Assembly: GCF_004210375.1 (NCBI RefSeq) | Contig: NC_134825.1 | Location: forward strand, 67,757,558-67,821,557 | DNA length: 64,000 nucleotides | Direction of reading: 5' to 3' | Source of the DNA: Tachypleus tridentatus | Taxonomy: Eukaryota > Arthropoda > Merostomata > Xiphosura > Limulidae | Shown here: piece after piece, positions 22,191 through 62,179 of the stretch | Numbering within the stretch: the stretch's first letter is position 1 | Layout: each line of letters starts with the position of its first letter | Translations under genes and position numbers: made by a program | Notes under the pieces: generated by a model | What the model was told of the DNA's origin: nothing | The model's input: only the letters and a program-made list of their open reading frames with translations | Database searches by the model: none

Positions 22191-22196
22191 TAAAAG

Positions 22197-25165: not shown

Positions 25166-28100
25166 ATGTACAGTTTTGGAAGACTTCCATTGTCCGACGT
25201 GTCCAACAACACAGTCTCCAGTTATAATGTCAGTGACGTGGATGATTATAACAGCTACCTGCGAGACCTTTTAAGAAAGATGTTAGAAGAGTACGAGAAA
25301 AGAAGAGAATTGAACGGTTCTGAGAACGGTAGGCAGTTCATATTTTGGATTTATTGTATTCTAAATTTCATTTTATTTCTACTTCGGACATTTAATAATA
25401 CCTGAACATAAACTGTAGTGTTTTTGTAAACCTCTCTCTCTCAGTATAAGTAAACAATATAAAGTCTCCCTCTGGGTGTGTGGTAATCTTAAAAATATCT
25501 AATAATAAAACCTGGGGCTACCGTTCATGAAAATATAAATTGTCTCATATAAATACGAGTCTATGAAATTATATAAATATAAATATTTATGTAGCAAGAG
25601 CTCTGTTTCTCACATAAAGTAAAACAAAATCCATACAGTTAGTAATTTTATCTTAGTGTTATTACGAAAATTGTGTTTAAGACATCAGATGCAGCAATTC
25701 TTATCACTTTATTTTTGCTTTGTACAGGTGAAGATGGATCCTCGGCTCTAAAAGTAGAGAGCGTGGATTTCCTTCCACGAGATAATGCTCTAAAACACAA
25801 CACCCAAATGTACGAACTCGTAGAGGGTCCTAAGCCTGTTCTCATACTTCGGCGTGGCTTGTCGTTTACTGTTACCATTCTGTTCAATAGAGACTACGAT
25901 CCAAAGAAACATACGCTTAAACTGGAAATGTCGTGTGGTGAGTTAGAATAACTAAAACCTGCTACACGTTTACAAACGTATTTATTAACCCTAACGTCTT
26001 AAAGACATGTTGAATAAGTTTTGATTTTAAAAATGATATAATAACCAACAAACATTTAGTTTTTATAATATTCAACTTTGATGACAGTGATTATGGGTTT
26101 GTCGATTAAGAGTTTTACGAGATCTATCTTACGATATAAAATATTCTGGAAAAATGTATTATTTTATTCTTAAGGTGTGATAAGTGCACAAAAACATACT
26201 TGTCACGTGATTACACTAATTGAAGACTTTTTTCTATACATTTTATATTTAGGTTCGAACCCTCAAATCAGTAAAGGCACCTTAGTTGTAATACCCATAA
26301 CCAACAACGATTCATATAAAGAAGATAAAACAAAGTGGGATGTGCGACTACAAAGTCACGATGGTTCTAACATAACTCTCCAAGTACACGTGCCCTCTTC
26401 CGTGGGAGTTGGAATTTGGAAGATGAAAGTTACTTCACAATTAAACTCAAAAGATGACGAACCAGTCTCTTCTTCAGAAACGTATGAATGCAAGGAGAAT
26501 ATTTACGTTCTCTTTAATCCATGGAACAAAGGTGAGTTTAAAAGTAAAAATATCCATAACTAAAACTTATGTTTTACGAAGAGATTTTTTTCATTAAATA
26601 AAGGTGCTAAGAGTACTAACGAGATGTAATTTTGTTTTTGGTCGACAGATGACTCTGTCTACATGCAAGATGATAAAATGAGAAAAGAATACGTTTTGAA
26701 TGACGTTGGAAAGATTTATGTAGGTTCGTTTAACTACCCACAAGGAAGACAGTGGATTTTTTTGGGCAGGTAATAAATGTTTAATAACTTAAATAAAACT
26801 GACATTTCTCTTCAGTTTAATAGCATCTAAAAAATAAACTATTGAAAAATATTGATGTTTATGTTTCATTTCGGCTTCTAAACAGTTACACGGCACAATT
26901 CTATCAATTCTACTTGAGTCAATAAGAAGAGTATATTTTGTATTTCAGTTTAAAGACTCGGTCCTTCCGGCTTGCATGTTTTTGTTGGAACGTTCTCGTC
27001 TCGATTACAGTTCCAGGACTAACCCAGTCAAAGTAGCTCGTGCTGTGTCGGCCATGGTAAGATTTCTTTGAAAAATCGTGATACGAGTATTACCTTAATT
27101 TAATACATTTACTTTTGTCTCTTATCAAAATTGTGATGCAAGTTTTATCCACTTGTTTGTGTCAGGAAATCATTAAAAGTATTGTCTAAATATAATAGTA
27201 TAATAACTAATTGTTTTCACGAGTTTCAGCGCGTTCAAAACTATATTTAATCCAATTTAATATTTCAAGATTAACTATACACTTTACATATACTTAGCAG
27301 TAAATGTAATAAACACATAATCAGAAATCATTAAAAACCTTTGACTTTTTCTGATTAAAGGTGAACAGCCTTAACGACAACGGTGTGATAATAGGTAGAT
27401 GGCATGAGCCTTATGATGAAGGTGTCGCCCCCTGGAAATGGACTGGAAGTGCTGCCATTCTAGAAAAGTTTATGAAAAACGGAGGAGATCCAGTGAAATA
27501 TGGACAATGCTGGGTATTTGCTGGTGTATGCAATACTGGTAGGTTTCGCTTCTTTCTGCCTATATTTTATGTGATAACTAACTTTTATTAGCTGGATTTA
27601 ATAAAATGTAGATTCATGATTTGTTTTAATATCATACATTTGTCATAACGAAATAAAAAGGAAAAATCAATAATCTTAAGATATTTATATCAGTGAAAGA
27701 AATGATGAGCAATCAAAGTCATTTGTGTGACAACAAATATAACAATTTAATCTGTTAATCACAAGCAGACATAACAGGTTTTTTATTAACATGTACATAC
27801 AACAAACTAATCTAATGTTGCGTATATGCCTTTATATGTCATGTTCAAAGTTTCTTAAACCATTTATTAAACATAAAGTTGATGACAATTTTTTATACAA
27901 CTATATTACAAAAGGAGCTAACCATTAAAGTTATTAAGTGTTTTAGAAGTTATTTAAAGGTAACTATTTATAAGATGATACAGTTGTTTCATTCATGTTA
28001 ACATTCACACAAAATGATTATTAACATTTCACTATCTTAACACCTCCTGTTCATATCACTACATTCCGAAGAATCTCTTTCCACATCATAAAAGCGATAA

Positions 28101-31100
28101 ACAGAAGTAATATAGTGATTTCAATAACCCAAGTTATTGTTTTAATATTTACTGTACATCACGAAAATGTACTTACGAAAATTTTGTCGGTTGCTAAAAC
28201 ATTTTATGAAACTTTAATTTGATGTGTTATGGTTACAGTTTGCCGAGCCTTGGGGCTCCCCTGTCGGCCAGTTTCAAACTTCGTGTCAGCTCATGATGCA
28301 GACGCCACATTAACCATTGACAAACTATTTAACGAAAACGGAGATCAGATGTCTGGAGGAACAAACGATTCAATATGGTACTTAAGGTTTTATGTTACTT
28401 TAATGTGATAATATTGTTCCAAATTATTGCATATTAACGGCATGTTCAGATAAGATTTAATTACTAGCCGTTTTAGTACAGTTTTATAAAGAGTTTCTGC
28501 ATTTGTTTTTCTTATATATATATATTATATGATATATAACTTTTGAAAATACGTTTCTAAACAGTGAAAAGTTAAGGGAAAGTAGCTCATTATAACAGAA
28601 GGTTTTTCTTTTATCTTTATGACAAGAACATCCTCTAACGATCGATCACAAAACTTGTTAAGTATGTGTGACTTTGTCACTGAGTTTTGAACGGAATGAA
28701 ATCAATGTGTTAAACATTTTTAAGTATTTTATATAAAGAAATCTTTCTTCTGTGATTAGTTTTACAACACGAAACTCGTTCACTTTATTCAGATAACCTC
28801 TGAATAAGAAACAAAGATGTATTAACTAACTCGACAACTCGTGTTTCAGGAACTTCCATGTATGGAATGAGTGTTGGATGGCGAGATCTGACCTTCCTGC
28901 AGGATACGGGGATGGCAAATAGTTGACGCCACCCCACAGGAAACCAGCGAAGGTATCTAACTCCTAAAATTATAGTTTCAACTGAATAAAATTATAGTTT
29001 CTATGTAAATATTTGTTATGGCTGTATTAAGTAAACCATAATAATCATCAATATTATTTAATATTTACTTATTTACAAAGTATGAATACGAAAACTGTGG
29101 TTTTGTATGATGACTTGCAGTTTGGATCTTGCAATTTAATATTAAACTCAGTTAAAGCAAGTTTCATAGTCTTAGAATCAAGAAATTTTAAAGGATATCA
29201 AAAATTACTCTTTACTTTAAAGTTCTGGGAATATAATTAGAGATATGTTTTGATATTTTCACTCAGGTATCTATCAGTTAGGACCAGCATCTCAACTAGC
29301 TGTGAAAAGAGGAGAAGTTGGATACAGATACGACGTCCCTTTTGTCTTCGCTGAAGTCAATGCAGACATCGTTTACTGGCAGAAAGACCGAAAAGCGGAA
29401 ACTGGGTGGAAAAAATGAAAACAAACACTAGCCAGTACGTAATTTTAAGTGTTACATGTTGTTACATGTTGTTTCTGAATGTACACCGTATTCGCCATTT
29501 GTAGTGACTGATATTCTGGTTGGCTTCTTTTCCTTTATTTCCGTAGTAACAACTCAGGAACGGGTATACCTGAATACAAGTGTCTGCGACCTCACAGTTC
29601 AGCCACCTTTTATACAAAGTGCCGTTTAGGTTGAAAATTCCAGTTCCTGAAATCTTATGCATGTTTTTGAGCACAATACATTTCAGTTAAAAATACCGCT
29701 TTGTTATATCTATATAAATCACACTTCTTATTTATAAGCTGGTCCTTCATGCTTGCATAATAAAATAGGCCCTAGAAGACAAACTTTTCTTATAATAGGT
29801 TATTTCTCAAAGATAATTAATCCAATTATTAATTAATGCAATCAAAAGCTATCAATTTGATATTACGTCTGGCTGCAGATATTGTTTAAAAGATAATTAT
29901 TTTTTAGTAGACGTAAATGTTCAATGTTAAATGAATTACTAACAAGTTACTGACTGGCTTTATTTCATTTCCGTTCCATGTTAGGTTTAACTCCACAACA
30001 ACAACTTGCTTAATTTGAGAATTAGCTTGTTTCAAAGGCACAATACGAGTGTGATAAACTGTTGTTTTTTTAAACTTATAGTGTGGGCCGTCTTATACTA
30101 ACAAAGAAGGTTGGAGTTGATGATGATTATGGAAACAGGGATGCTGAGGATATCACTTACGAGTATAAAAACAAAGAAGGTAAGTAACCAGTATATGTTT
30201 ATAAAAATAAACCGACGTTTTGAACACTTGTGTATTGGAGAGTTTGTTTATTTTGTTTCTAAGTGGAAAGCTACACAATGAGTTTGAAAATAAAATTGCA
30301 CCAGAGAATCTTGTTGCCTGATAAAACTGGTTTGTGTCCTGCAGGAACCGAGGAAGAGAGAATGTCTGTACTGAACGCCACAAACAACGATATTGTGAGA
30401 CACAGATTCGACCGACCTGTTGAAAAAGAAGACGTTTCATTCGAGCTATTGGAGAGTAAGAAAGTGATGATAGGACGGCCATTCGATGTAACAATAAAGA
30501 TTAAAAATCTGAGCAGCAAACCCAGAACAGTGTCAGCCATATTGTCAGCCAGCAGCGTTTACTACACTGGAATTACAGCTAAAATGTTGAAACGGAAGAG
30601 TGATAAATTTATCCTTCAACCTAAGCAAGGTACACTTATGTTACCTAGTTTCACCTTTCTTGTATCCGTATGATTTGTACTGATTAGAAGATAGACCTCA
30701 TGAGCTGTTTATAGAATAATCTAATTACCATATGTAAGGTAATTGATAAACAGGACAGGTGTGGGTGTTGACGAAGTAAATAGAGTTCTGATAAAACTGT
30801 AATTGCGTAGTTCAGTACGGTAACGTAGAAGTCTAATACAACTTTATTTAAAATGATAAACACTGTTGTACTAGTTCAACATAACTGTTCTTAAATTAAT
30901 TAACACCATTGTTTCTAATAGAATGTTTTCTATCATAGCAACAAATTTGTTCTAATATATATATGTATATATTTAAAGTTAAATTTGATATTTCCCAGAA
31001 GTAATGTTCAGGAATTTTCTATCTTTATATAAGTAACGAAAAATGATGATGTAACTAAAGATATGTATTCACAATATTTATTATTAAAAACAATGAATTA

Positions 31101-32383
31101 CATAGAATTAACTTGTGATCTAGTGTTGTCACAAGAAAAATGTGTAGCATAAACGTGTACAAATGAATTTAACGTTCGGTACGCATTGAGAAATAGGTTT
31201 AGGGAAAATTGTAATAACTGTCTGTAGGGATTATAGAGATTCGTTTTACATAGAAAGTTATATTAAATATATGTTATTTACAGAGGAACTTCTTTCAATT
31301 AAATTGACCTCAAGCGAATATCTCGACAAACTGGTGGATTACGCCATGATAAAAATCTACGCTTTGGCCACAGTGATGGAAACGCAGCAATCCTGGTCTG
31401 GTGAGGACGATTTTGTACTGGACAAACCGAAGTTGAGTCTTGAGGTAAGGTCAAATAAAGATCATATTTTTAAAATTCTAACGATAGACACTACATTATG
31501 TTCCATATCTAGAATCCATGATAAATCCTCGATAATGAAATGTACTGTTATTATTATTTAACTTAGGTCCACGGAACTCCAGAGGTTGGAAGACCATTTG
31601 AATTAGTTATCACTTTTCAAAACCCACTGAAACGTATTCTGGAAGATTGTGTCTTCAATATTGAAGGACCGGGACTTGCAGGACCGTACCATTCAAAGTT
31701 CAGGTGTGGAAAATGTGCTTTCTCGTGTCTTAAAACAAAGTAACTCTCCGTATTTGAGTAAATTCAATTTCACACAAAATTTCTTTAAACCTATCCGTAT
31801 TTACGAACAAACAAATACCATGCGTCTTTACTTTATAATAACAATTCTAAAATAAACGAATTCAGCGACAATGTGTGAGAAGTTGATAAAAAACGGTTGA
31901 AAGACTAAGAGATACTTCTGAACTTAACAGTTGTTTCTCATATAGTAATTTTAACTTTGTTTATAATATTGTTTAAGGAGAATTTCATTTAACCAACATT
32001 TAAATGGTGAGATAATCATACACAAAAAAACTCAATTAAGATCTTCTTAAGTCGAACAACTGTTGTTCAGATACTAGTTATAATTAAGTTTGTAGATTAA
32101 TATCGAATCTGAATAATGTTACCTGTTTAACTACGTTTAAAACAATACAAAGTTTACACATCGATGGCTATATTATGTTTTTTTTCATAACATAATTTTG
32201 TACCATTACAGGGATATCAAACCAGGTGAAACTATAACTCATAACGAAAAACTCGTTCCTCAGCAGCCTGGTTCCAAGACAATATTCGTCACTTTCAGCT
32301 CTCGGCAGCTCATCCAGCTCATGGGATCAAAACATATTGAGGTGATCCCAAAATCCGATCCAAGCCACAACGAGACTTTATAA
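25166..32383 (+). CDS. Hemocyte-type transglutaminase, copy A (14 exons)
   Basis: Protein-glutamine gamma-glutamyltransferase: forms Gln-Lys isopeptide bonds using calcium and, in horseshoe-crab hemocytes, cross-links clot proteins. Exons: 25166-25328, 25728-25937, 26253-26531, 26649-26769, 26949-27056, 27361-27538, 28239-28377, 28850-28952, 29267-29434, 30082-30179, 30345-30629, 31284-31444, 31567-31703, 32212-32383, all GT-AG. The uninterrupted model is 773 residues, against about 764 remembered for the Tachypleus enzyme. Order: charged N-terminal extension without signal peptide (1-54), N-terminal beta-sandwich (about 55-217), core (about 218-530) with Cys343 in [10 protein letters not shown], His402 in FHVWNECW and Asp425 in DATPQE, calcium-site-like EGTEEER (about 522-528), two C-terminal barrels. 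Oddities: compared with copy B, exon 4 has two extra T (26757-26763), exon 8 lacks a G (28908-28911) and exon 9 lacks an A (29410-29415). As given, the core is out of frame. Confidence 0.93.
27753..28001. repeat. Intron 6 indel between copies A and B
   Basis: Copy A has about 243 bp that copy B lacks at 48556. In A the segment is bounded by the direct repeat tgttaa (27753-27758 and 27996-28001) and B has one tgttaa, so B most likely lost the segment between short repeats. Confidence 0.7.
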
Positions 32384-32802
32384 GTTCTGTTTAAAGTTAC
32401 TGTTTGAGATGCAGTGTTGTAAACTTTAGGTTATTGAATCGTGTTGTTTAATTAATATACTCGTATTTCTGTGTAACTTATGCCTTTCAGGGATCAACTT
32501 TTTTTTTTTTAAGCATGTTAATTTTCTGTTTTTGCTTTCTCATTTCAATACGATATGTTATAGTATTTCTTGGAAGTTTTAAATATATTTTCGAAGTCTT
32601 GAAGATTGATGCTATATTTATACCACTTGGGTTCAACGAGTGAGCAATTTTTCACTTAAAATATATTTTCCATGTCTCCAGTTTAAATCACGTATTTGTT
32701 TCTATTGAAATACTTAATATCTGTTGTGTATTTTTCAAATTAAGATCGAATTTATTTATTTATTTATATCTCGTGCAGTAAATGACAAAATACTCATAGT
32801 GT

Positions 32803-32808
32803 ATTAAA
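32803..32808 (+). promoter_or_regulatory. Candidate poly(A) signal of TGase A
   Basis: attaaa, a common variant signal, about 420 bp after the stop. It is preserved at the equivalent place in copy B (53341-53346). No nearer AATAAA was seen in this 3' region. Confidence 0.3.
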
Positions 32809-34390
32809 CTTTTTAAAAAATATCAATGAAATATAGTATCTGTTTGAATTAATTCGTGAAGGCAGGTTTGCCATTTAGTACACTTTCAAAGTTAGTTCCT
32901 TATTAGAACCACAAAGAAAATCGTAAAACATTTTAATTAAAATATCCAAGTCATGGTGATGATTTCATGTCTGGAAAGTGAGTTGCGCTGGAGTAAACAA
33001 ATAACGATTTCAATTTGAAGATCTAGAATTAACAAATTTCACGTCAATTTCAAAATCAATGACATTTTAAAGTTTGTTTTGTCATACCAAAGGCACCTCG
33101 TATTATTTGTTGTGTCAACCAACTAGAATCGAACCTATGATTTTAGCGTTTTATTTCTGAAGATATACCACTGTTTCACTTGATATATAGGTGTTAACCC
33201 ACATGTGAATACTTAAAGAAACTGTTATCAAGGTCATACCAAAAGAGTTATTATGTTACTGTTTCTATCACTGTGTATATTCTTGTTAATTAATTTGTAA
33301 AAAAAATCACAGAAACAGAAAATATTTCATTTCTTCCAGCATACATAGTTTCACAAAGTAACACCAACTAATCCACATGTCTAACTCACAGAGAAAACTA
33401 AATATTGCTTGTTAAATTTCCTCCGTCGTATATAACACCGTCTAACAGACTGACTCCTAAGTGATTAACCAGCCCATCCACTAATTCACTGTGGTATTTT
33501 TATGAAATACTAGTTTTCCAAAAGTCTTTCGAAAATTGGATATGTGACGTAAGATTTAAACACTGGAATTTCTGAATAATTACGTCATACCGAACCTTTT
33601 ATCTAGAAAAAAAAAAGACTAAATTAAATCACTCAAAAAGAAAACCTATAACTCTGGGCCTTCCAAGACTTTGAAATCGTTAGAACAATTTTAACACACA
33701 AATGGAACAAAGTGTGTTAAAGTTCCATATTTATTTATGTATTCTAATGTACAATTATGAAGATGTAATATTTGTTAATGGAATTATCAGTACTAAATCG
33801 TTAATTAAACGAAAAAAGAAACAAGATCTTTTTACTCTTCCGTGGTTTGTGGAACTTGGACGAAACGATCTCTGTCCTTTGTTTTCATTTTGTGTCTTAT
33901 CACGTGGCGAGTTCTCTATGGTAAATGGTTGAACGAATCCTTTTATGTCTGTAGTTCTCTTTATAATCTGGACGTTGTCTCAACAGGTTCTCATGCATGT
34001 TTAATTAGTTTGCCGAAAGCTAAAGTTTTGCTAGAGATGTAACAACTATCTGATCTCCTGTCGACGTCTTTCGAAAGATTGTCAGAACACTTAATACTTT
34101 TTCTGGTTTCTTGTCTGTTACATTCAAGGTCGACTCTTCTCATAACACTGTGCACCAATCTTTGTAGTTATCTGAAGTCCATTCTCTAGCGGTGTAATTG
34201 TTATATAATGTATATTTGTTTCCTTGTCGTAGGCTATAAAACAATTTGAAACTACCCTAACTTCAAAACCGCTTTTCTAAATCAGTAATTTTCAAATATG
34301 CACTCATTCTTGGTATGTAATATCCACACAGTATGAAGTGTAGAGAATATATTCTGAAGACGGCTGGAACGGGTGTAAGAATTGTTATTA
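32809..34390. other. TGase A 3' flank, no gene seen
   Basis: The stretch to about 33060 and parts from 33130 to 33700 align with 53345-54400 behind copy B, with unit-specific replacements. A decayed tRNA-like repeat scrap is near 33120-33185. Open frames at 33702-34042 lack support. Confidence 0.5.
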
Positions 34391-34391
34391 T

Positions 34392-34495
34392 AATAAAGTA
34401 CAGAATAATGTTTCGACCTTCTTAGATCATATTCAGGTCTTTGTTTTAGTTTCAATATGACCTAAGAAGGTCGAAAGGTTATTCTGTACTTTATT
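34392..34495. mobile_element. Inverted pair of PLE-end hammerhead-like motifs
   Basis: aataaagtacagaata and tttcgaccttcttag at 34392-34426 return in reverse complement at 34458-34495 (cctaagaaggtcgaaa, then ttattctgtactttatt), with a spacer of about 13-20 bp. The ctaagaaggtcgaaa core matches the stem II plus GAAA part of PLE hammerheads. At 34545-34562 gtgggtttctcgttatca matches the outer end of the PLE at 15311-15328. It is a different PLE subfamily from 11442-15334, and the surrounding 34150-34790 has no counterpart in unit B. Confidence 0.65.
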
Positions 34496-35195
34496 TTAAT
34501 TAAAATACTGATACCCATACCAGCCGAATAAATTTTTATTTCGTGTGGGTTTCTCGTTATCAGGAAGCGCAGAGAAGTTATCCACAGGAACTGTAACATT
34601 CTTCTTGTTGTAATTTTATGTCCACTTTCAGTTAGAATTAATCGATAATAATTCTTTCTCTCTAAATGAAATTTTCTCTGTTTATCCAATACTGAACAGT
34701 TGTCGCTGTAGAACCAGTATTGATCAACATGTTTCAAGGATTTTCATCAACGAATCCATTATCTCGTGTGCTGGTTTTTATAAATAATTAACAGTTTATA
34801 TATTTTAGAGTAAATGGAGTTTTGTTAGTAAGATCTCGCCCATAAGCTCAGCTAATTCCTATTGTCCGATGTCTGAATTACTCACTCTTACCGGTTCCTT
34901 CATCTGACTAAAGTCGTCACTATGGTGATGTCTCACTCTTTAAATACCATCTGTTTATTCCTTACACTCCTATAGTGATGACTGTGTTCAAACATATATA
35001 ACAGTTCTCTTTTACTGACATCCTTTGGAAGGAATTTTAAATCCCTATCAACTTATTCCAACAGTTATTGGTAATATGTCCTTTCACGATACAGTCGAAA
35101 TAACTACTGTCTTGTAGTTTCCATCTTCCGTTCTAAATAATTAATTATTTAATTATTCGTTTCACTTCTTCTGGAATACCGTCAGAGGGAGTTCA

Positions 35196-35427
35196 GCTAG
35201 CACAGATAACCCTAATATTGCAGTGTAAGACTAGATGGAAAGCAGCTAGTAATCATCACCCACCGCCAACTCTTGGGTTACTTTTTTACCAACAAATAGT
35301 GGGATTCACCATTACTTTATAACATCTCACGGCTGAAAGGGCGAGCATGTTTGGCGTGATGGGGATTCGAACCCGCAACCCTCGAATTACGAGTCGAGTG
35401 CCTTAACCACCTGGCCATGCCGGGGCT
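35196..35427 (-). mobile_element. SINE in the 3' flank of unit A
   Basis: A reverse-oriented tRNA-derived SINE from gctagcacagataaccc to catgccggggc. It keeps the head and body but lacks the A-rich tail. Unit B reads through from gagggagttca to gattatcctgaat around 54915-54955, so the insertion is specific to A. Confidence 0.9.
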
Positions 35428-35783
35428 CACTTTGCGTGAAGTGATTATCCTGAATTTCTGTATGGTGTTTTTAGATCTTTATCGGTGATTTTAATGGATG
35501 TAAGTTCTATCGTCAACTGTCAAACTTCCTTCAAAGATGATCATATGCCTTGCTTTAGTCTAATTCAGATATCCTAATATATTACGGTAATTTTGAACTG
35601 CTGAGTGGATTAATGAATCCACACTTCATGTGGAACATCCTTACAAGATATCTTGATAAAGGTTTTCACAAGTTCTGTTAAACTATCATCCACACTCTTT
35701 ATTCTGCTTCAAAACTGTTTTATAATTATTATATACAGGGATGTAGAAGGAAAATTAAAACTGGGAGAGGACCAAAGCTGATT

Positions 35784-38579: not shown

Positions 38580-38791
38580 GGCCCGATATGGCTAAGTGAT
38601 TAAGGCGCTCGACTCGTAATTTGCGGGTTCAAATGGCCATCAATACCACCATTCGTTGGTAAAGAAGTAGCTCAAGAGTTGGCGGTGGGTTACGATGACT
38701 AGCTGTCTTCCCTCTAGTGTTACAGTGCTAAAGTAAGGACAGCAAGCGCAGATAGACCTTGAGTACCTTTGCGCGACATTTAAAAACAAAC
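38580..38791 (+). mobile_element. SINE with internal deletion and TSD
   Basis: The head starts ggcccgatatggctaagtga. The B box runs straight into the later body (gggttcaaatggccatcaat), so about 70 bp are deleted inside. The flanks carry aagaagttacaa and aagaagtcgcaa (from about 38568 and 38792), a slightly diverged target-site duplication. Confidence 0.88.
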
Positions 38792-41230: not shown

Positions 41231-41299
41231 AACAATATATTGCTGAATATAAACTAAACAATAACTGTAGGCAAAAAAAGTATAATATATATGTACATT

Positions 41300-42081: not shown

Positions 42082-42109
42082 AGGACACTAGTGATAACAT
42101 GCCTAAAAT

Positions 42110-45125: not shown

Positions 45126-45134
45126 TATATAAAG
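45126..45134 (+). promoter_or_regulatory. TATA box of TGase B
   Basis: tatataaag, 234 bp before the ATG, with the same surrounding block as copies A and C. Confidence 0.7.
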
Positions 45135-51300: not shown

Positions 51301-52907
51301 AGTAAATAGAGTTTTGATAAAACTGTAATTACTTAGTTTAGTACGGTAGCGTAGAAGTCTAATACAACCTTATTTAAAATGATAAACACTGTTGTACCAG
51401 TCCAACATAACTGTTCTTAAATTAATTAACACCATTGTTTCTAATTGAAGGTTTTCTATCATAACAACAAATTTGTTCTAATATACATATATATATATAT
51501 TTAAAGTTAAATTTGATATTTCCCAGAAGTAATGTTCAGGAATTTTCTATCTTTATATAAGTAATGAAAAATGATGATGTAACTACAGATATGTATTCAC
51601 AATATTTATTATTAAAAACAATGAATTACTTAGAATTAACTTGTGATCTAGTGTTGTTACAAGAAAAAAGTGTAGCATAAACATGTACAAATGAATTTAA
51701 CGTTCGATACACATTGAGAAATAGGTTTAGGGAAAATTGTAATAACTGTCTGTAGGGATTATAGAGATTCTTTCTACATAGAAAGGTATATTAAATATAT
51801 GTTATTTACAGAGGAACTTCTTTCAATTAAATTGAGCTCAAGCGAATATCTCGACAAACTGGTGGATTACGCCATGATAAAAATCTACGCTTTGGCCACA
51901 GTGATGGAAACGCAGCAATCCTGGTCTGGTGAGGACGATTTTGTACTGGACAAACCGAAGTTGAGTCTTAAGGTAAGGTCAAATAAAGATCATATTGTTG
52001 GAATTCTAACGGTAGACACTACATTATTTTCCATATCTAGAATCCATGATAAATCCTCGATAATAAAATGTACTGTTATTATTATTTAACTTAGGTCCAC
52101 GGAACTCCAGAGGTTGGAAGACCATTTGAATTAGTTATCACTTTTCAAAACCCACTGAAACGTACTCTGGAAGATTGTGTCTTCAATATTGAAGGACCGG
52201 GACTTGCAGGACCGTACCATTCAAAGTTCAGGTGTGGAAAATATGCTCTCTCTCTAAAATAAAGTAACTCTCCGTATTTGAGTAAATTTAATTTCACACA
52301 AAAATTTCTTTAAACCTATCCGTATTTACGAACAAACAAATATCATTCGTCTTTACTTCATAATAACAATTCTAAAATAAACGAATTCAGCGACAATGTG
52401 TGAGAAGTTGATAAAAAACGGTTAAAAGACTAAAAGAATCTTCTGAACTTAACAGTTGTTTCTCATATAGTAATTTTAACTTTGTTTATAATATTGTTTA
52501 AGGAGAATTTCATTTAACCAACATTTAAATGGTGAGATAATCATACACAAAAAAACTCAATTAAGATCTTCTTAAATCGAACATCTGTTGTTCAGATACT
52601 AGTTATAATTAAGTTTGTAGATTAATATCGAATCTGAATAATGTTACCTGTTTAACTACGTTTAAAACAATACAAAGTTTACACATCGATGGCTATATTA
52701 TGTTTTTTTCATAACATAATTTTGTACCATTACAGGGATATCAAACCAGGTGAAACTATAACTCATAACGAAAAACTCGTTCCTCAGCAGCCTGGTTCCA
52801 AGACAATATTCGTCACTTTCAGCTCTCGGCAGCTCATCCAGCTCATGGGATCAAAACATATTGAGGTGATCCCAAAATCCGATCCAAGCCACAACGAGAC
52901 TTTATAA
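45360..52907 (+). CDS. Hemocyte-type transglutaminase, copy B (14 exons)
   Basis: Same enzyme and layout as copy A. Exons: 45360-45522, 46522-46731, 47047-47325, 47444-47562, 47741-47848, 48162-48340, 48789-48927, 49402-49505, 49760-49928, 50608-50705, 50871-51155, 51812-51972, 52095-52231, 52736-52907. All junctions are GT-AG with phases 1,1,1,0,0,1,2,1,2,1,1,0,2. Exons 4, 8 and 9 are in frame ([27 protein letters not shown]). The one defect is an extra C in exon 6 (six C at 48229-48234, five in copy A), which throws off the frame just before the catalytic [10 protein letters not shown]. Substitutions against A are few: LKSKDD for LNSKDD, PWSKG for PWNKG, KNEGD for KNGGD, KLSSSEY for [11 protein letters not shown] for LSLE, KRTLED for KRILED. 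Whether the C is real or an assembly error decides gene or pseudogene. Confidence 0.93.
45660..46390. other. Intron 1 segment shared by copies B and C, missing in A
   Basis: Phrases such as tttcctttcccttgggacaa and cttgaccttatgacct recur at 62310-63120 in copy C. Copy A goes from the same splice-donor side to the acceptor side in 399 bp, so A probably lost the segment. A (ta)n run is at 45755-45772. Confidence 0.7.
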
Positions 52908-55287
52908 GTTCTATTTAAAGTTACTGTTTGAGATGCATTGTTGTAAACTTTAGGTTATTGAATCGTGTTGTTTCATTAATATACTCGTATTTCTGTGTAA
53001 CTTATGCCTTTCAGGGATCAACTTTTGTTTTTTTTTAAGCATGTTAATTTTCTGTTTTGCTTTCTCATTTCAATACGATATGTTATAGTATTTCTTGGAA
53101 TTTTAAATATATTTTCGAAGTCTTGAAGATTGATGCTATATTTATACCACTTGGGTTCAACGAGTGAGCAATTTTTCACTTAAAATATATTTTCCATGTC
53201 TCCAGTTTAAATCACGTATTTGTTTCTGTTAAAATACTTAATATCTGTTGTGTATTTTTTAAATTAAGATCGTATTTATTTATTTATTTATTTTTATTAA
53301 TTTATATCTCGTGCAGTAAATGACAAAATACTCATAGTGTATTAAACTTTTTAAAAATATCAATGAAATATAGTATCTGTTTGAATCAATTCGTGAAGGC
53401 AGGTTTGCCATTTAGTACACTTTCAAAATTAGTTCCTTATTACAACCACAAAGAAAATCGAAAATCATTTTAATTAAAATATCCAAGTCATAGTGATGAT
53501 TTCATGTCTGGAAAGTGAGTTGCGCTGGAGTAAACAAATAACGATTTCAATTTGAAGATCTAGAATTAACAAATTTCACGTTTTCTACACAACACACATA
53601 ATATAATTACGGAGAGAAAATATTCGAATCAATTCATTTGATGTCTAGTTTCTTTTTTCTTAAAACAACTCATTATTTAAAAGGATGAATATGTAAACAC
53701 GATATACAATGATTATACCAGTTGTACGCGGTCGTTTATAACGAGAAAAATCGAACCTATGATTTTAGCGTTTTAATTCTGAAGATTTGTTACGAACCTA
53801 TGATTTTTTTTAATTCTGACATATAATATATAAGGTGTTAACCCACATGTGAATACTTAAAGAAACTGTAATCAAGATCACCCCAAACAAGTGATTATGT
53901 TACAGTTTCTATCACTGAGCATATTTTTGTTAGTTTATTGCTAAACAATAAAGCAAAGTTCAGTCCAATTAACAAGGAGGGAATATGTTTCATTTTTAAC
54001 TAAAATTTATAACCGACATGGTTTCACAAATTAACACTAAACAAGGGACATGTCTAACTCACAAATAAAACTAAATATCGCTTGCTAAATTTTCTCTGTC
54101 GTATACAACACTGTATGACCTACTTTCTCGCAAACTGATTAACTAACCCTCTCAACAGTTACTTCTGGTGCTTTTATGAGATACTAGTTTTTTCAAAAAT
54201 CTTATGAAATTTGGATACGTCACGTAAGATTTAAGCTCTGGAGAATATCTGTATAATTACATACCGAAAATTCTACTACAAAAAAAAAGACTAAATTAAA
54301 TTATTAAAAAAAAAACTATAACTTTAGTCTTCCCTAGATTTTGAAATCCCTAGAAGAATCTTAATACACAAATGAAACAAAAGTTTGTTAAACTTAAAGT
54401 TTAACATTGCTGGATATCGAACAATTATGTGCTCTCCTGTCAACGTCTTTGGAAGACGGTCAGAACACTTGATATTTCTCTTGGATTACATATAATCTTG
54501 AATATCTCTTGAATATCATATAATTTGGAGCAAATGGAGTTTTCTTAGCTCACATTCGCACATAAGCTCAGCTAATTCCTATTGTCCGATGTCTGAATTA
54601 CTCACTCCTTCGGATTTCTTTATCTAATTGGGTTCAAGGAGTCGTCGTCACTATGGTGATGTCTCATTGATTAAATACTATCTGTTGATTCCTTACACTC
54701 CTATAGTGATGACTGTGTTCACAAATGTATAGTAGTTCTCTTTTACTGACATCCTTAGAAGGAGTTTTAATTCTCTATCCGTTTATTCCAAAAGTTATTG
54801 GTAATATGTCCTTTTTACGATGCAGTCGAAATAACTATTGTTTGTGGTTTCATCTTCCGTTCTACATAACTAATTATTTAATTATTCGTTTCACTTCTTT
54901 TAGAATACCAGCAGAGGGAGTTCACGTTTACACATTGCTCGATATGATTATCCTGAATTTCTGTATGGTGTGTTCAGATCTTTATTTGTGTTTTTAATGT
55001 ATTCAAGTTCTATCGTCAACTGTCAAACTTCCTTGAAAGGTGATCATATGCCTTGCTTTAGTCTAATTCAGATGTAACTAATATATTACGGTATCTTTGA
55101 ACTGCTGAGTGGATTAATGAATCCACACTTCATGTGGAACATCCTTACAAGATATCTTGATAAAGTTTTTCACAAGTTCTGTTAAACTATCATCCACACT
55201 CTTTATTCTGCTTTAAAACTGTTTTATAATTATTATATACAGGGATGTAGAAGAAAAATTAAACCTGGGAGAGGACCAAAGCTGATT
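52908..55287. other. TGase B 3' flank, no gene seen
   Basis: It aligns in blocks with the unit A 3' flank (for example gctcagctaattcctattgt and atgaatccacacttcatgtg in both) with replaced stretches between. A candidate attaaa signal lies at 53341-53346. The frame at 54725-54997 is not conserved as an open frame in unit A. Confidence 0.5.
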
Positions 55288-56125
55288 TCACCCAGTGAAA
55301 TGAGGGAATATTCGCCACATGTACATAACACACGTCATTCTCCGGCCTTTATCAACAGTAATTTTTCTAATTTTCATGCATTTTTACTGAGTAAGATTGA
55401 GAAATGTACCCCTTTCCTCTACTTTCTACCCCACTAGCAGTTAATATTTATTGGTTATGTTCACTCATTTACAGATTTTTTTCTGTGATAAAAGTCGCTT
55501 CTCATTTATTTCAAAATATTTTTATTTGTCAGTGTGAGAATGAGGGAGAATCAGGAAAGAGTAAGTGACTATTGGCTTACATGGCCAAATATGAATAAGT
55601 ATTTAACATATTGTAGTTACTTTTTACAAAATAGTATTTAAGAAATTTACATACATTTTTCTCAAAATAAAATGTTTATAAAAGCGATACCACAAACTAT
55701 TCACGGTACATGAATTACTTAATGCGTTGTACCAGTGACAACAAGTTCAAAAAACTTGGATGTTAGGGTTCTGCTCCTAAGTTCTCAAAGACAAAATCCC
55801 ATGGACGAACAAGCACTTCTAAGCATCCTTGCTAAAAAAATACATTGTAGATAATAGAATGAAAGCATAATACATTAATCAACTGCTGAATAATTATTAA
55901 TAATCTAGTTGTTTTGAATTAAGCACAAAGCTGCACAGTGGGCTTTCTGTGTTCTGCCCACCAAGGGTATCGATACCCGTTTTTTAGCGTTGTAAGTCCC
56001 CAAACATATCGTTGAGCCTCTGGGAGGCTGTTAATACTGACTCAAACAGTTGTTAATCACAGGATCGCATAAAGATATTGCAACCAGGAACAAGGTGATT
56101 CGAATTCAAGTAATTCTAGCTACTG
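55288..56125. other. No gene seen; tRNA-like repeat copy
   Basis: A minus-strand copy of the second tRNA-like family lies at about 55915-56035 (ttaagcacaaagctgcacag, gggtatcgatacccg, gttgtaagtccccaaacata). The remainder is unremarkable AT-rich sequence. Confidence 0.5.
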
Positions 56126-56127
56126 AG

Positions 56128-56213
56128 TAAACATACGGCGTCTCTATGGTATAACACTTATTGTTTAATATTATCATATGGTGTCTTTATGGTATAGCAC
56201 TTATTGTTTAATA
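56128..56213. repeat. Short tandem duplication beside the DNA transposon
   Basis: The phrase of type ggtgtctttatggtatagca, followed by cttattgtttaata, occurs at about 56129-56162 and again at 56180-56213. The transposon sits at the end of the second copy. Confidence 0.75.
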
Positions 56214-56722
56214 CAGTGGAGCGTCGTTAAGCCGCGGTATTTGAGGGGTCAATCTGCTTAACCGCGGCTTAAACCTTTGTGGAAAATTGAGGAAGCTACT
56301 GGTACATCATCATCAATGGAGTGATTTCTATTGGGTTTGTGGCCAATATTTATACAATTCCACAAAAATATCAGATTATCGAATTAAAATTAATATTTTA
56401 ATTATTTATCACTTTTTTCACGGATTTACCGCGGATTAACTTTAATGTATGGAGAGGTGTGATTCGGTAACAATGGCGGCCTCCATAAAGCTGACATAGA
56501 GAGCGAATAAGGTAGATTAACGGTCGATTTATATTGTAATATATTTTATTTATTTCCCAAATTAAAGCAAATCCTTTTTAAATATCCCCTTAAAGTTATA
56601 AAGCCAGAATTAAATTCGTAAGCCGCGTTTTTACACGTTCTTAAATTAGCGGTGACAAGACTTGCTACAGAGGCTTAAGCGATTTCGCGGTAACTGTGCC
56701 GCGGCTTAATGGCGCTCCACTG
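56214..56722. mobile_element. Non-autonomous Tigger/pogo-type DNA transposon
   Basis: The ends are inverted repeats: cagtggagcgtcgttaagcc at the left and, reversed, cagtggagcgccattaagcc at the right, followed on both sides by gcgg. TA dinucleotides at 56212-56213 and 56723-56724 are the target duplication. The interior (about 460 bp) has no transposase. Further inner copies of the cttaa-ccgcgg theme occur near both ends. TA target and CAGT start fit the pogo/Tigger branch of Tc1/mariner. Confidence 0.85.
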
Positions 56723-56724
56723 TA

Positions 56725-57715
56725 TTATCAGAAGAAGTTCACACCCTTATCGTTTAATTCGTTACTTTAGTAAGGCTAACTTAACCAATTGTATTTGCTT
56801 TGTTTTTTTTTCAAATATTTTAAAGAACTTTCTTGAAACTAATTCTATAACCATTTAGAATATGTTGAAAATTTTACAATAAAAAAGAGTAACTTAATTA
56901 GTCGACTTATGACGTATTTTTTCAGCTTTAAAACATATCGCTGCTGTTTTTTTAAAAAATTGAATAATAGCTCGAAGTAGTAAAAAGTAGTTTCTCATAG
57001 AACGTACTTTGTTGAATATCTCACAAATACTTGAATGGTGTGCCCATCATAAAACATTGAATGTTGTTTTCAGATTCTGTTTGAAAAGTGTTTTTTTTAG
57101 TTTCAAATCTAAATATCATTGTATTATGATATTTTATATAATTTGTAATTCATCATAAAATCCACATGTTTAAGTCGTTATTCTGTAGTAACACACAAAC
57201 CTTATTTTAAATTGTTCTTCATATCATGAGACTTAAAATTTATATTAATGTGCTAATTTTCGCTGATAAATATGTGATGTTATTTTAAATAAAGACAAAT
57301 GGCTAGTTTGTCGACTTAAAACAAAGGAACTGATACTGAAAAACAATCTTACCGTGAATTGAACTTAAAATTTATTCCAGTCAAATGATAAATGTAAATA
57401 ATACAAATATTTCGTGCAACGATAAGTAAAAAAATTGTTGTATCACTTCAGGACGACTTTAATGGTGAGGACATAAAGTAATGTTTATTATTATGCTTGC
57501 ATATCTTCGTATGACAAACTCTCACTAAATGTCCGTATATATAGATAACTGAGTCTAATAAAGAACCTATTGAATATAAATTACACAATAGTTGTATAAA
57601 AACAGAATGCAAACATTTCACTAATGTTTGGTGGAACATCTTTTATAAGCTCTCGAAGAATTATTATCATTAATTATACTTTTCAGTGATGTCGAGAAAA
57701 CCCACTTGCAGAGAA
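56725..57715. other. No gene seen
   Basis: AT-rich intergenic sequence. The minus-strand frame at 57448-57639 has no features to support it. Confidence 0.5.
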
Positions 57716-57719
57716 AAAT

Positions 57720-57945
57720 TTATATGTAAAAACGACTGATTTGAATTTAGAGAATTTTTTTGTGTAGAGGAGCGAACAACATTTCGATGATCTTCGGTGA
57801 TCGTCAGGTTCACAAAGAAAGAAAGAGGTAACTGGCCTATAGTTGACCACATGTTTGAAGAGGTTGTGTAACTGAGTGTAGGAATGTAGAGGGCGTGTTT
57901 GATTATTAATAACATATATAATTGCAATAATTAGCATAATAGCCA
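57720..57945 (-). mobile_element. PLE 3'-end fragment with hammerhead-like motif
   Basis: It matches the left-arm end of the big PLE in the same orientation: gagcgaacaacatttcgatg, ggtgatcgtcaggttcacaa, gaccacatgtttga and gaatgtagagggcg. The hammerhead-like part is 57772-57813 (minus), still with GUGAAC/GUUCGC stem I and CUGACGA but a weaker stem II. It is decayed. Like 41300-42081 it lies at the left edge of the B/C shared block. Confidence 0.85.
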
Positions 57946-58454
57946 TTATGATGATTCCTTATGGCAAGCATGATTATTTATTGCACTTTTTGTTCCAAAT
58001 TATTCTTGTCACACTTTGACTTGATATGAAATATTCCAAATGTGTAATTAAGCGTTAGTTGTAAGTCGCTCTCCTTACAATTTATATATAAGGTAGTGTA
58101 TTGGTGCTATAAAATCATTAGGTTTATATGTGCTGTGCATATTGTTGTGTTGTCTGTAATTTTATGTATCCATAAACTGTGTATTGTTTTATCCTTCGGA
58201 AACGTGGGCCGCATTATGTTTCAACCAGCCATTTTTTTCGGTACGCAACTGTACCATCGGCAATCTTTAACGTTAACTACAAAGTGAAAGGAATTTCGTA
58301 CTGATCTTGTCAAAACACAACGAACAGAATACCATCGGGACGCCTAATATGGTTACAGTAACGCCTTGAGCCATATCATAATTCCAACTGTATCCGCTAG
58401 GCTTACTATCAGAGTATAACATTTTGTCAATTCCAGAGCTGCAGAAAGAGGCTT

Positions 58455-58734
58455 TGTTTGTTTGTTTTGGAATTTCGCACAAAGCTACTCGAGGGCTATC
58501 TGTGCTAGCCGTCCCTAATTTAGCAGTGTAAGACTAGAGGGAAGGCAGCTAGTCATCACCACCCACCGCCAACTCTTGGGCTACTCTTTTACCAACGAAA
58601 AGTGGGATTAACCGTCACATTATAACGCCCTCACGGCTGGGAGGGCGAGCATGTTTAGGCGCGACTCGGGCGCGAACCCGCGACCCACAGATTACGAAGC
58701 GCACGCCTTAACGCGCTAGGCCATGCCAGGCCCG
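58455..58734 (-). mobile_element. Full-length SINE, specific to unit C, with TSD
   Basis: Reverse orientation, from tgtttgtttgttttggaatt to ccatgccaggcc. The flanks carry cagaaagaggctt (58442-58454) and cagacagaggctt (58735-58747). Unit B reads through at about 42755-42775, so this insertion followed the B/C split. Confidence 0.93.
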
Positions 58735-58932
58735 CAGACAGAGGCTTCGGGGATGTTTTGAAACACAAGGCAACACAACTTCCGCCCTCATTTCTTCATG
58801 AAATTGAGTGTAATCACGTGAAATGTATTAGAAACTTTGAGCAACTGGAATCGTCTTCAGCCTATGAAAAGTTTAACTTGTTCGAAAGTTGTATTATCGC
58901 TAGAATATCTTAGTTTTTATCATTTAAGTCAT

Positions 58933-59338
58933 AAACAATTACAATACAGGTCTAAAACAATACAAATGGTGTAATCATCCAGTTATTACAGACAAAATAA
59001 ACAATTACAATACAGGTCTAAAACAATACAAATGGTGTAATCATCCATTTATTACAGACAAAATAAACAATTACAATACAGGTCTAAAACAATACAAATG
59101 GTGTAATCATCCATTTATTACAGACAAAATAAACAATTACAATACAGGTCTAAAACAATACAAATGGTGTAATCATCCAGTTATTACAGACAAAATAAAC
59201 AATTACAATACAGGTCTAAAACAATACAAATGGTGTAATCATCCAGTTATTACAGACAAAATAAACAATTACAATACAGGTCTAAAACAATACAAATGGT
59301 GTAATCATCCAGTTATTACAGACAAAATAAACAATTAC
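58933..59338. repeat. 66 bp minisatellite, 6.15 units
   Basis: Units start with aaacaattacaatacaggtc at 58933, 58999, 59065, 59131, 59197 and 59263, with a final partial unit at 59329. They differ only at one position (catccagttatt or catccatttatt), so expansion is very recent. Unit B has no array at the equivalent place. Confidence 0.97.
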
Positions 59339-59534
59339 ATTAAAAAGAGCATGATACCAACTTTTAGTTGTTTTTGAGTTGATTTATAAAAATAACCTAG
59401 TGAAGCTTGTTCAAGCCAAGGAGTCATGCTGCACTGGAATTATTTAAGTAAGACACAACAACAAATGAAACACAAATTCAGTCGGCAAGTTCGCCTTCAA
59501 AAGGACAAAAAATTATTTGATATAACATGAACTA

Positions 59535-59690
59535 TGGGCTACTCTTTTACAAATGAATAGTGCAATTGATTATCAACTTATAACACCCCAACAGCTGAAA
59601 AAGCGAGCATATTTGGTGTGACTAGAATTCGATCAGACGACCCTCAGATTACGAGTCAAGCGCCCCTAACCATCTGACCATGCCAGGCTT
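59535..59690 (-). mobile_element. Partial SINE, reverse
   Basis: It holds the head and first half of the body in reverse: gggctactcttttac, cagattacgagtcaagcgcc and ccatgccaggc. The 3' half is absent. Diverged. Confidence 0.8.
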
Positions 59691-59854
59691 TATAAATTTA
59701 TCAGATACGACTACAAGTTCTCCTTTCTCCAGGAATGGTATAGTCTGGAGTTATAGCAATCAACTCTCAGTTTGTGAGTTCCGAGTTCGAAGCCTGTTAC
59801 ATAATAAACTTTATCTTGCAGTAAAGATTATCTCGGAACAATCTTAGTTTTAAA

Positions 59855-60065
59855 TAATACTGTGTGTGGCGCTGGATTTGCGATTTACGGATCGCAAGTT
59901 CGAAGTCACTCGTCGAATAAACTTGGCCCTTCAGCCATGAAGACGTAAAATCTGAAGGTCAATCCGTATATCAGTGGTGGGGAATGTTGACTAGTTCTGT
60001 GCCAATCAAAATTACGAGTGGGTAATACAGTTAACCATCGAGATTTACACGAAATTCAACAAAGA
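59855..60065 (+). mobile_element. Ancient SINE remnant
   Basis: The family order can be followed (gcaagttcgaag, cccttcagccatga, aaggtcaatcc, gtggtggggaatgttgacta, cacgaaattcaacaaagaaa) with heavy substitution. It occupies the place of the ancient SINE of units A and B (22890 and 43367) and may be the same insertion. Confidence 0.6.
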
Positions 60066-60308
60066 AACTAACCAAACTTCTTTCAAATTGTTACTACATT
60101 TTACGTCCGAGTTTTATCCAAATAAAATACTTCTTTTGGGAAAATGTTTAATGTGTATGCGACTATTTTTGCCACAAGAGTGAGTGAATAGCTCACGCGT
60201 TATATTACTTTAACTTTCAGAATAGTGTATTGTTATTAATAGTTTATTAATCTAGTTACAGTAGTTAATAACAACAGTAGTTAGATTATTGCCACAGCAG
60301 AAAAGAGG

Positions 60309-60580
60309 CCTGGCACGGCTAGGTGGTGAAGGTACTCGACTCGTATTCTGAGGGTTGAGAGTTCGAATCTCTGTCCCACCAAACATGCTCGCTCTTTCAG
60401 CCGTGGAGGCGTTATAAGGTTACGGTCAATCCCACTATTCGTTGATTAAGAAAAGTAGCCCAAAAGTTGGCGGTGAGTGGTGATTAATAGTTTCCTTCCC
60501 TCTCGTCTTACATTGCTAAATTATGAACGACTAACGCATATAGCCTTCGTGTAGCTTTGCGCGAAATTCAAGAACAAACA
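60309..60580 (+). mobile_element. tRNA-derived SINE, full length, moderately diverged
   Basis: It begins ggcctggcacggctaggtgg, has a B box agttcgaatctctg and ends gcgcgaaattcaagaacaaa. It lies upstream of copy C and is not seen in units A or B. Confidence 0.9.
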
Positions 60581-61114
60581 ATAGGAAACAAATGAACACA
60601 ACAATCGATTAAAACTATCCATCTAACTAAAACATCACCTGTCCAATAATATCTAAATTACAACCATTTTAGTGATGGATTAAGATTACATATTGTTATA
60701 AAATGCACTTTACAGATCTGTTTCAAAATTAATTATCTTGAACATTTTCTTGTTTTACATCGACTGCAATTAATATTCAAAACATCAGAATTCAGCTGAG
60801 TGGAGTGGAACAGTAACCAACAACCGTATCAGGTTATAATAGTTCAACTATATAACAGAGATTACATCAAAAATGTTTATTCACAATCCTTACTCAAAGC
60901 TATAGTGTTTGATTTAGCAAAGTTTTCATTGTTATGACATCATATGGTAACACACGTCACATTATTCTAATAAAGTGTTAGCATACCGTTACTATAAATA
61001 CCCTTATTTAAAAATACCATTAATACACCGTACGTGTTTTGCACAAGCAAATTATGCTTACGCTAGACTTTGAAAACTCTTGTTGGATAAACTTCAAGAC
61101 GTCACCAGTCTTAC

Positions 61115-61122
61115 AGACGTCA
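61115..61122 (+). promoter_or_regulatory. CRE-like half site upstream of TGase C
   Basis: AGACGTCA followed by the conserved ctattaactc. It is 681 bp before the TATA box, matching A (about 682 after removing the SINE) and B (687). One base of the palindrome is lost. Confidence 0.4.
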
Positions 61123-61795
61123 CTATTAACTCATTCTTCAACTGATAGATGACGTAGGAAGATACTGATGTCAAACTATTATTTTTATACTTTTCTTCGT
61201 AACAGATACATAAAATGTACTTGCATTTGTAAGTGTAAACAAATAAAGTAGTTACTAAGAAAGTATAGAAAAGAGAATCTACTTAAACACGTGGCAATCG
61301 TAAAAATTATTTTAATCACTTGTATGCCAACAACAGTAAAAACACATAATACTAGTGTCAATTTATAATGAAATTTTCTCTGGTTATTTTTCGCTTGCAT
61401 AGCCACTAGTATTGTGATTGAAACAGAAGGAATATCACCCCAATAACACAGGCTATGATTACACGTAAGTTAAAAGTTCCAAATTCACAGAAACTTGTGG
61501 ACGGGAATGTGACGTTTCCAATAACGTTGCCCAATTACAGACATCTAACACTAAAACGTCACATTGTTGTTTACTTCGAAGAATGGAATGCCCAGTTTGA
61601 ACAAACAACACGTACTTTGCAACATGTGTGTACGTCATTAAATCAGATTAAGGTACAGACAGGCCACTACTGATTTCCTCTTCCTATGAAATGGATCTAC
61701 AATTAATAAACGAACGAATTTCTCTCGTAATTGATTCTTACCATCACATGGTGTATTGAGAAACTGGTATTTCCAAAACTGTTCACTCATTTATC

Positions 61796-61804
61796 TATAT
61801 AAAG
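61796..61804 (+). promoter_or_regulatory. TATA box of TGase C
   Basis: tatataaag, 221 bp before the ATG. The distance is a little shorter than in A and B because of a small deletion in the 5' UTR near 61890 (after ataatttatctt). Confidence 0.7.
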
Positions 61805-62016
61805 AAGATCATTAGCTTACTTGATCTAAGATATCACGAAAGTTATTATACTCTGATTATAAAGTTCTTCAGAAGTTATAATTTATCTTCGGTAAAGGAG
61901 TTTCAATCTTAAATCAACAGCTACTTTTTGTTATATACGAAGTTGACATTAGCTAGTAAAGTATATCGCAGTGAAAAAAAATATTTGGCTTGTGTTCAGA
62001 AATATTGACTCGGAAG

Positions 62017-62179
62017 ATGTACAGTTTTGGAAGACTTCCATTGTCCGACGTGTCCAACAACACTGTCTCCAGTTATAATGTCAGTGACGTGGATGATTAT
62101 AACAGCTATCTGCGAGACCTTTTAAGAAAGATGTTAGAAGAGTACGAGAAACGAAGAGAATTGAACGGTTCTGAGAACG
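62017..62179 (+). CDS. Transglutaminase copy C, exon 1 only
   Basis: It encodes the same N-terminal 54 residues as copies A and B with no amino-acid change (starts [20 protein letters not shown], ends RRELNGSEN plus the first base of a Gly codon) and has the same phase-1 donor g|gtaggcag. The ATG at 62017 is chosen because it matches the other copies. Upstream in-frame codons reach a TTG at 61990, but those bases are 5' UTR in A and B. Exon 2 is not found before the window ends at 64000, although the intron matches copy B up to about 63120. Either a large insertion or loss follows, or the gene is a broken copy. Confidence 0.85.

What the first reader, a model, noticed from the sequence alone, without database searches (positions are those of the whole stretch)
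25166..62179. Tandem array of at least three hemocyte transglutaminase genes
Copies A, B and C lie head to tail on one strand with matching promoters, exons and splice phases. Hemocyte TGase is a clotting enzyme and, from memory, was first described as a single cDNA. A local array implies more dosage or diverged roles. Copy C may continue past the window.
Basis: partly seen in the sequence, partly recalled or inferred. Interest (0 to 1): 0.75.

Follow-up and report, generated by a model that had tools for sequence, protein, structure and literature searches.

The report
Tandem transglutaminase genes, horseshoe crab
A horseshoe crab genome carries several nearly identical, side-by-side copies of a clot-crosslinking type of enzyme gene inside a large repeated DNA block, a real but fairly ordinary case of immune-type gene multiplication whose exact copy number the present assembly cannot settle.

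Summary
The window carries two complete 14-exon transglutaminase genes (A 25166-32383, B 45360-52907) and exon 1 of a third (C 62017-62179), head to tail; C is complete beyond the window. The genome is a horseshoe crab's, judged by its coagulogen family. A, B and C are separate loci, not haplotypes of one another: they recur in the same order in a second array, where B/B' and C/C' introns differ by 1.0-1.4% while A, B and C differ by 4.6-8.1%. Past C the sequence turns back into the segment F found upstream of A, so the genes sit in a block of about 112 kb that is itself tandemly repeated. The locus holds six 14-exon copies and three partial ones, but N gaps break it and some contigs may be alternative haplotypes, so copy number is open. 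Only one of the six has an uninterrupted frame; the 11 indels in the other five all lie in homopolymer runs and look like assembly errors. Exons of A-B and B-C are more alike at synonymous sites than introns, suggesting homogenisation. 'Hemocyte' could not be tested. New member of a known kind.

The parts
25166..32383 (+). TGase copy A, 14 coding exons: 25166-25328, 25728-25937, 26253-26531, 26649-26769, 26949-27056, 27361-27538, 28239-28377, 28850-28952, 29267-29434, 30082-30179, 30345-30629, 31284-31444, 31567-31703, 32212-32383
   Evidence: three small homopolymer indels (exons 4, 8, 9) interrupt the frame as assembled
45360..52907 (+). TGase copy B, 14 coding exons: 45360-45522, 46522-46731, 47047-47325, 47444-47562, 47741-47848, 48162-48340, 48789-48927, 49402-49505, 49760-49928, 50608-50705, 50871-51155, 51812-51972, 52095-52231, 52736-52907
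   Evidence: one extra base in a C-run in exon 6, upstream of the active-site Cys codon
62017..62179 (+). Exon 1 of TGase copy C; exons 2-14 lie beyond the window to C1:67828642
24760..25165 (+). Proximal promoter of A with TATATAAAG
44954..45359 (+). Proximal promoter of B
61605..62016 (+). Proximal promoter of C; similar near the start, more distal upstream sequence diverged 21-26% from A and B
1..64000 (.). The whole window lies inside one copy of the repeat unit, 112,231 bp by assembly coordinates (C1:67719846-67832076)
   Evidence: the stretch 67715021-67757557 was not read base by base
1..24149 (.). Part of segment F and the region upstream of A; stretches of it recur at C1:68492584 (+) and 67901771 (-) and in partial inverted copies

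Best explanation
A genuine local array of near-identical FXIII/TG2-type transglutaminase genes, grown by tandem duplication at two scales: gene by gene (A to B about 20.2-20.5 kb, B to C about 16.7-18.2 kb) and then as a block F-A-B-C of about 112 kb. Shown: order, exons, catalytic triad, the block junction, a second array in the same order. Inferred: unequal crossing-over between blocks made and keeps changing the copy number; conversion between copies keeps exons alike while introns and distal promoters drift; the product is one enzyme made in larger amount or under slightly different regulation, crosslinking clot and cuticle proteins after release into calcium-rich plasma.
For: 14-exon models in six copies with no splice site lost. 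Pfam Transglut_N, _core and _C; factor XIII A chain is the best solved relative, 2.5e-151 over residues 74-761, with the GQC, FH/YH and D motifs of the triad aligned. A second array carries the copies in the same order (A' from exon 7 on, B', C'); positional partners differ by 0.96% (B) and 1.41% (C) in introns, A, B and C from each other by 4.6-8.1%. Junction C|F at C1:67832076/77 in sequence without N from the window start to 67854470, and again in the inverted contig. Ka/Ks 0.24, 0.04 and 0.12 for A-B, A-C and B-C; 0.14 and 0.08 for B-B' and C-C'; 25 of the 28 pairs compared are at 0.41 or less. Synonymous below intron divergence for A-B (p 5e-5) and B-C (p 0.003), not for B-B' or C-C'. Function of horseshoe crab TGase: passages of PMC2956697.
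Against: Five of six 14-exon copies are frame-interrupted as assembled. A-C and A-D show no significant synonymous deficit (p 0.28 and 0.16). Three of 28 pairs, all with the partial copy A', have Ka/Ks 0.55, 0.83 and 1.66 on few changes. No expression or depth data. N gaps break the locus, and parts of it were not read, so copy number, the exact unit length and the order of the large blocks are not secure.
Confidence: 0.72

Rival explanations
1. Haplotig inflation (compatible with the array being real): the second array about 735 kb downstream (A'-B'-C') and perhaps the inverted copy are the other haplotype of the same locus, left in the assembly as false duplications. True content would then be about three to five genes per haplotype.
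For: The contig that holds the window begins right after a 500-N gap (67714222/23) and ends at another (67854471), and its first bases match the downstream copy outside the repeat unit too (about 1.1 kb of that 5.6-kb flank was compared). Substitution divergence from the downstream array is 0.58, 0.93 and 0.96% in the three long positional blocks, close to the 0.8% heterozygosity reported for Carcinoscorpius (PMC7210998 passage).
Against: F occurs in three separate places, two in direct and one in inverted orientation, more than two haplotypes of a single copy give. F also recurs past copy C on the window's own side of the gap at 99% identity, so the same low divergence also separates true paralogues. 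Divergence is uneven: A-A' introns differ by 3.1%, and pieces of F by 3-4% when gaps are counted. The inverted contig has its own F-E-F-D layout.
Confidence: 0.55
2. Mostly pseudogenes: one functional gene (like C') and decayed copies broken by frameshifts.
For: 20 small coding indels in eight copies; only C' intact among six 14-exon copies. Some indels are shared between copies (A/B', B/D, C/E, A'/B'), which fits inheritance as well as systematic error. Partial copies E and G4 exist; A' has 8 indels, 6 of them not in homopolymers.
Against: No substitution-made stop in any of eight copies after masking indels, no splice site lost, and in B-B' plus C-C' 5 nonsynonymous against 13 synonymous changes (p 5e-6), while small indels are not significantly rarer in coding than in noncoding DNA (p 0.27). 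All 11 indels of the five interrupted 14-exon copies lie in homopolymer runs. That pattern fits poorly polished repeats. The related C10 gene shows no frame break in its 13 matched exons, which alone proves little.
Confidence: 0.15
3. A and B are uncollapsed haplotypes of a single locus.
For: Coding identity is very high (Ks 0.016).
Against: A, B and C lie on one sequence without N, B and C differ from each other far more than from their positional partners, and intron 1 has distinct lengths (399, 999, 2041; partners D 399, B' 1007, C' 2035).
Confidence: 0.03

Closest known systems
Horseshoe crab hemocyte transglutaminase (Tachypleus tridentatus)
   Same: FXIII/TG2-type enzyme in an animal with coagulogen genes; substrates of the known enzyme are proxin, stablin and cuticular caraxin, which it crosslinks with coagulin or into a mesh (PMC2956697 passages)
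Tandem innate-immunity clusters of Carcinoscorpius rotundicauda (carcinolectin-5b, carcinolectin-3/CEBP-PI, FucTC)
   Same: Local expansion of defence-type genes; 230 clusters of three or more genes reported (PMC7210998 section 11)
   Different: Transglutaminase is not named in that paper's main text; its supplementary list could not be read
Human coagulation factor XIII A chain
   Same: Best solved relative, aligned over residues 74-761, same triad motifs
   Different: The first 73 residues here are not aligned; single gene in human (recalled)

Membership tests
Animal transglutaminase (FXIII/TG2 type) | Transglut_N, Transglut_core and Transglut_C domains | tested here: met
   all three above Pfam cut-offs, on the C' protein only
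Animal transglutaminase (FXIII/TG2 type) | Cys-His-Asp catalytic triad | tested here: met
   Cys343, His402, Asp425 (positions) align with the FXIII motifs; none is among the 20 variable positions of eight copies, indels masked. Which residues form the triad is recalled
Animal transglutaminase (FXIII/TG2 type) | Crosslinking activity dependent on calcium | not testable with these tools
   no assay
Horseshoe crab hemocyte transglutaminase | Comes from a horseshoe crab | tested here: met
   Coagulin family PF02035, 19 matches; coagulogen count 0 in the scorpion and three spiders of Table 2 in PMC7011531 (passage); species not determined
Horseshoe crab hemocyte transglutaminase | Sequence identity to the published hemocyte cDNA | not testable with these tools
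   no reference sequence was at hand
Horseshoe crab hemocyte transglutaminase | Expression in hemocytes | not testable with these tools
   no RNA data; the main text of a T. gigas hemocyte proteome paper holds none of the transglutaminase terms searched (PMC9365167)
Tandem gene array | Three or more paralogues, head to tail, on one contiguous sequence | tested here: met
   A, B, C on sequence without N from the window start to C1:67854470

The most novel reading that the evidence does not exclude
A block of about 112 kb with three transglutaminase genes is itself tandemly amplified and varies in number between chromosomes; recurrent exon-centred conversion holds the enzyme constant while each position (A, B, C) keeps its own intron 1 and, for C, its own distal promoter. 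This would be a clot-enzyme counterpart of copy-number-tuned immune arrays.
Probability: 0.35. Interest if true: 0.55.

Novelty: new member of a known kind. Interest (0 to 1): 0.4.

Why it matters
Horseshoe crab blood clotting underlies the endotoxin test. Published tandem clusters named in the main text of PMC7210998 concern lectins, a protease inhibitor and a fucosyltransferase; a repeated, apparently homogenised array of the enzyme type that hardens the clot suggests that crosslinking capacity too may be set by gene dosage, and gives a locus where copy number could be compared with clot strength. It also warns that single-gene assumptions and assembly-based copy counts are unsafe here.

Tried and rejected
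Whole-core Pfam search (PF01841) found one match, on C13, in a 446-residue open frame, and none of the array genes, presumably because their core is split among exons. Reading the downstream array as part of a full haplotig of everything left of the window was rejected: the probe at 67.60 Mb has no second near-identical copy (best other match 82%; 40 of 309 candidates scored), the one at 68.40 Mb matches only itself, and the one at 68.30 Mb only itself among 40 of 397 candidates scored. Probes of 1-1.5 kb across 67.67-67.71 and 68.41-68.44 Mb matched nothing across the two regions, only a 65-bp satellite within the first; 8.5-kb pieces then located the edge. Exon 10 of B was first cut short by a wrong anchor and corrected before that script stopped with an error; models used are. 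Literature: the rows shown (20 of 154; 15 of 3,263; 20 of 35; 15 of 48; 12 of 167; 15 of 23) gave no title or abstract start that reports a transglutaminase array in a horseshoe crab; the main texts of three horseshoe crab genome papers do not hold the word; supplements could not be read. The permutation test on identical runs was dropped as weak, because positional partners also reach p 0.006-0.02.
Full report
What was checked. The window is C1:67757558-67821557 of a 2.167-Gb assembly of 205 contigs. The Coagulin family gives 19 matches, so the animal is a horseshoe crab; the species was not determined. Exons were found by comparing copy B with a diverged relative on C10 and fixed by GT/AG sites and phase.

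Gene structure. A (25166-32383) and B (45360-52907) have 14 coding exons each; C starts at 62017 and ends at window-equivalent 71085, C1:67828642. The C' copy in the second array gives a 773-residue protein without interruption, with all three transglutaminase Pfam domains and factor XIII A chain as best solved relative, 2.5e-151. The triad positions are Cys343, His402 and Asp425; none of the 20 variable positions among eight copies (two partial, indels masked) falls on them.

Not haplotypes of each other. A, B and C lie on sequence without N. Their introns differ by 4.6% (A-C), 5.6% (A-B) and 8.1% (B-C), whereas B-B' differ by 0.96% and C-C' by 1.41%. A-A', which can be compared only over exons 7-14, differ by 3.1%, A-D by 3.4%, C-E by 2.2%. 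Intron 1 is 399, 999 and 2041 bases in A, B and C, and 399, 1007 and 2035 in D, B' and C'.

The array beyond the window. Genome searches list transglutaminase exons on C1, C3 and C10 (25 matches, with 58 of 192 candidates scored, so lower bounds). On C1 I count six 14-exon copies (A, B, C, D, B', C'), A' with exons 7-14 (it starts right after an N gap), E with exons 7-14 only, and a remnant G4 with exon 1, part of exon 11 and exons 12-14. D and E lie on the minus strand. The listed exon-1 matches are seven, all on C1; identity of the listed exons is 65-76% on C10 at 75.8 Mb, 51-57% on C3 and 48% on C10 at 172.4 Mb.

A repeated block. Sequence past copy C matches segment F upstream of A: L011:1-4000 is 99% identical to C1:67729308 and to 68464500, and the switch falls at C1:67832076/77, where F begins, matching 67719846 and 68455014. 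By assembly coordinates the unit is 112,231 bp. From the window start, which lies in F, through A, B, C and back into F there is no N. The stretch 67715021-67757557 was not read, so an N gap there, and a different unit length, cannot be excluded. The inverted contig shows the same C|F junction, followed by a jump inside F that I read as a deletion.

Assembly limits. 500-N gaps lie at 67713723-67714222, 67854471-67854970 and 68503738-68504237, and another run of N begins at 68100878. The sequence after the first gap matches the downstream copy from its first base: 95.3% over 808 columns and 100% over 294 bases, both outside the unit, whose edge is 5.6 kb further on. The window's array and the downstream array differ by 0.58, 0.93 and 0.96% substitutions in blocks of 11.2, 31.3 and 15.5 kb; with gaps counted, pieces of F are 96-97% identical. 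Heterozygosity in Carcinoscorpius is 0.8% (PMC7210998, passage). So the two arrays may be haplotypes or a real duplication; F before A and F after C are about as similar (99%), so divergence cannot decide.

Frames. 20 small coding indels occur in eight copies: A 3, B 1, C 2, D 2, E 1, A' 8, B' 3, C' 0; one of those in A' is 3 bases long. By my reading of that list 14 of 20 lie in homopolymer runs of four or more, including all 11 in the five interrupted 14-exon copies; 6 of the 8 in A' do not. No copy of the eight has a stop made by substitution when indels are masked, and no splice site is lost in the mapped exons. In B-B' plus C-C' there are 5 nonsynonymous and 13 synonymous changes (p 5e-6, site totals entered by hand), while coding indels (6 in 4,645) are not significantly rarer than noncoding ones (38 in 17,051, p 0.27). 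Of indels up to 2 bases, 17 of 24 (B-B'), 14 of 20 (C-C') and 15 of 26 (A-D) lie in homopolymers, against 15 of 34 (A-B) and 17 of 53 (B-C). I read this as consensus error in hard-to-polish repeats; real recent frameshifts are not excluded, and some indels are shared between copies.

Homogenised exons. Synonymous divergence is below intron divergence for A-B (0.016 against 0.055, p 5e-5) and B-C (0.032 against 0.065, p 0.003), not significantly for A-C (p 0.28) or A-D (p 0.16), and not for B-B' (p 0.45) or C-C' (p 1.0). The number of synonymous sites, about 495, was entered by hand, backed out of the Ks values; the pairs are not independent. Longest identical runs were not reached in 1000 shuffles for A-B, A-C and B-C, but A-D, B-B' and C-C' also give p 0.006-0.02, so this second test is weak. 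Exon-centred conversion is the likely cause; it is inferred.

Promoters. The last ~400 bp before the ATG, with TATATAAAG, align in six copies. In the 0.87-1.0 kb of gap-free columns within 1.5 kb upstream, A-B differ by 5.1%, A-C by 20.9% and B-C by 26.3%; partners differ by 0.2-0.5%.

Mechanism and function. Horseshoe crab transglutaminase is stored in hemocytes, secreted on stimulation by lipopolysaccharides and activated by plasma calcium; it stabilises coagulin by crosslinking with proxin and stablin, and crosslinks the cuticle protein caraxin (PMC2956697, passages). That these genes make that enzyme is inferred from family and host only.

Novelty. Tandem expansion of defence genes is a known feature of horseshoe crabs (PMC7210998 section 11). 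Among the rows shown no title or abstract start describes a transglutaminase array there, and the main texts of PMC7011531, PMC7210998 and PMC7815833 do not hold the word, but the lists were capped and supplements were not readable.

Noticed in passing
window 11430-15310: A 3.9-kb palindrome (arms 97% alike) with reverse-transcriptase ORFs (RVT_1 in one), Penelope-like by recalled features; absent from the two inverted copies of F, and the downstream contig ends near the matching place.
   Followed up: partly
window 58931-59339: 66-bp tandem repeat, 6.2 copies, 99% matches, open in one frame.
   Followed up: no
C1:67.93-68.28 and 70.20-70.25 Mb: Local repeat with copies on both strands beside the array, some about 6.77 kb apart.
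   Followed up: no
C1:67695001-67713685 (L034, L057, L058, L059): 65-bp satellite in the sampled pieces, ending just before the gap at 67713723.
   Followed up: no
C3:63.79-64.02 Mb (L001-L005): Another transglutaminase cluster with inverted pairs; L002/L003 differ by 1.3% over 2.7 kb and 5.4% over 332 bases, L001/L004 by 5.3% over 2.6 kb.
   Followed up: partly
C7:19.2-20.5 Mb and C11: Coagulogen-family exons are also clustered.
   Followed up: no
L024 and L025, C1:68559083-68561057: Remnant transglutaminase G4: exon 1, part of exon 11 and exons 12-14, middle exons missing.
   Followed up: partly
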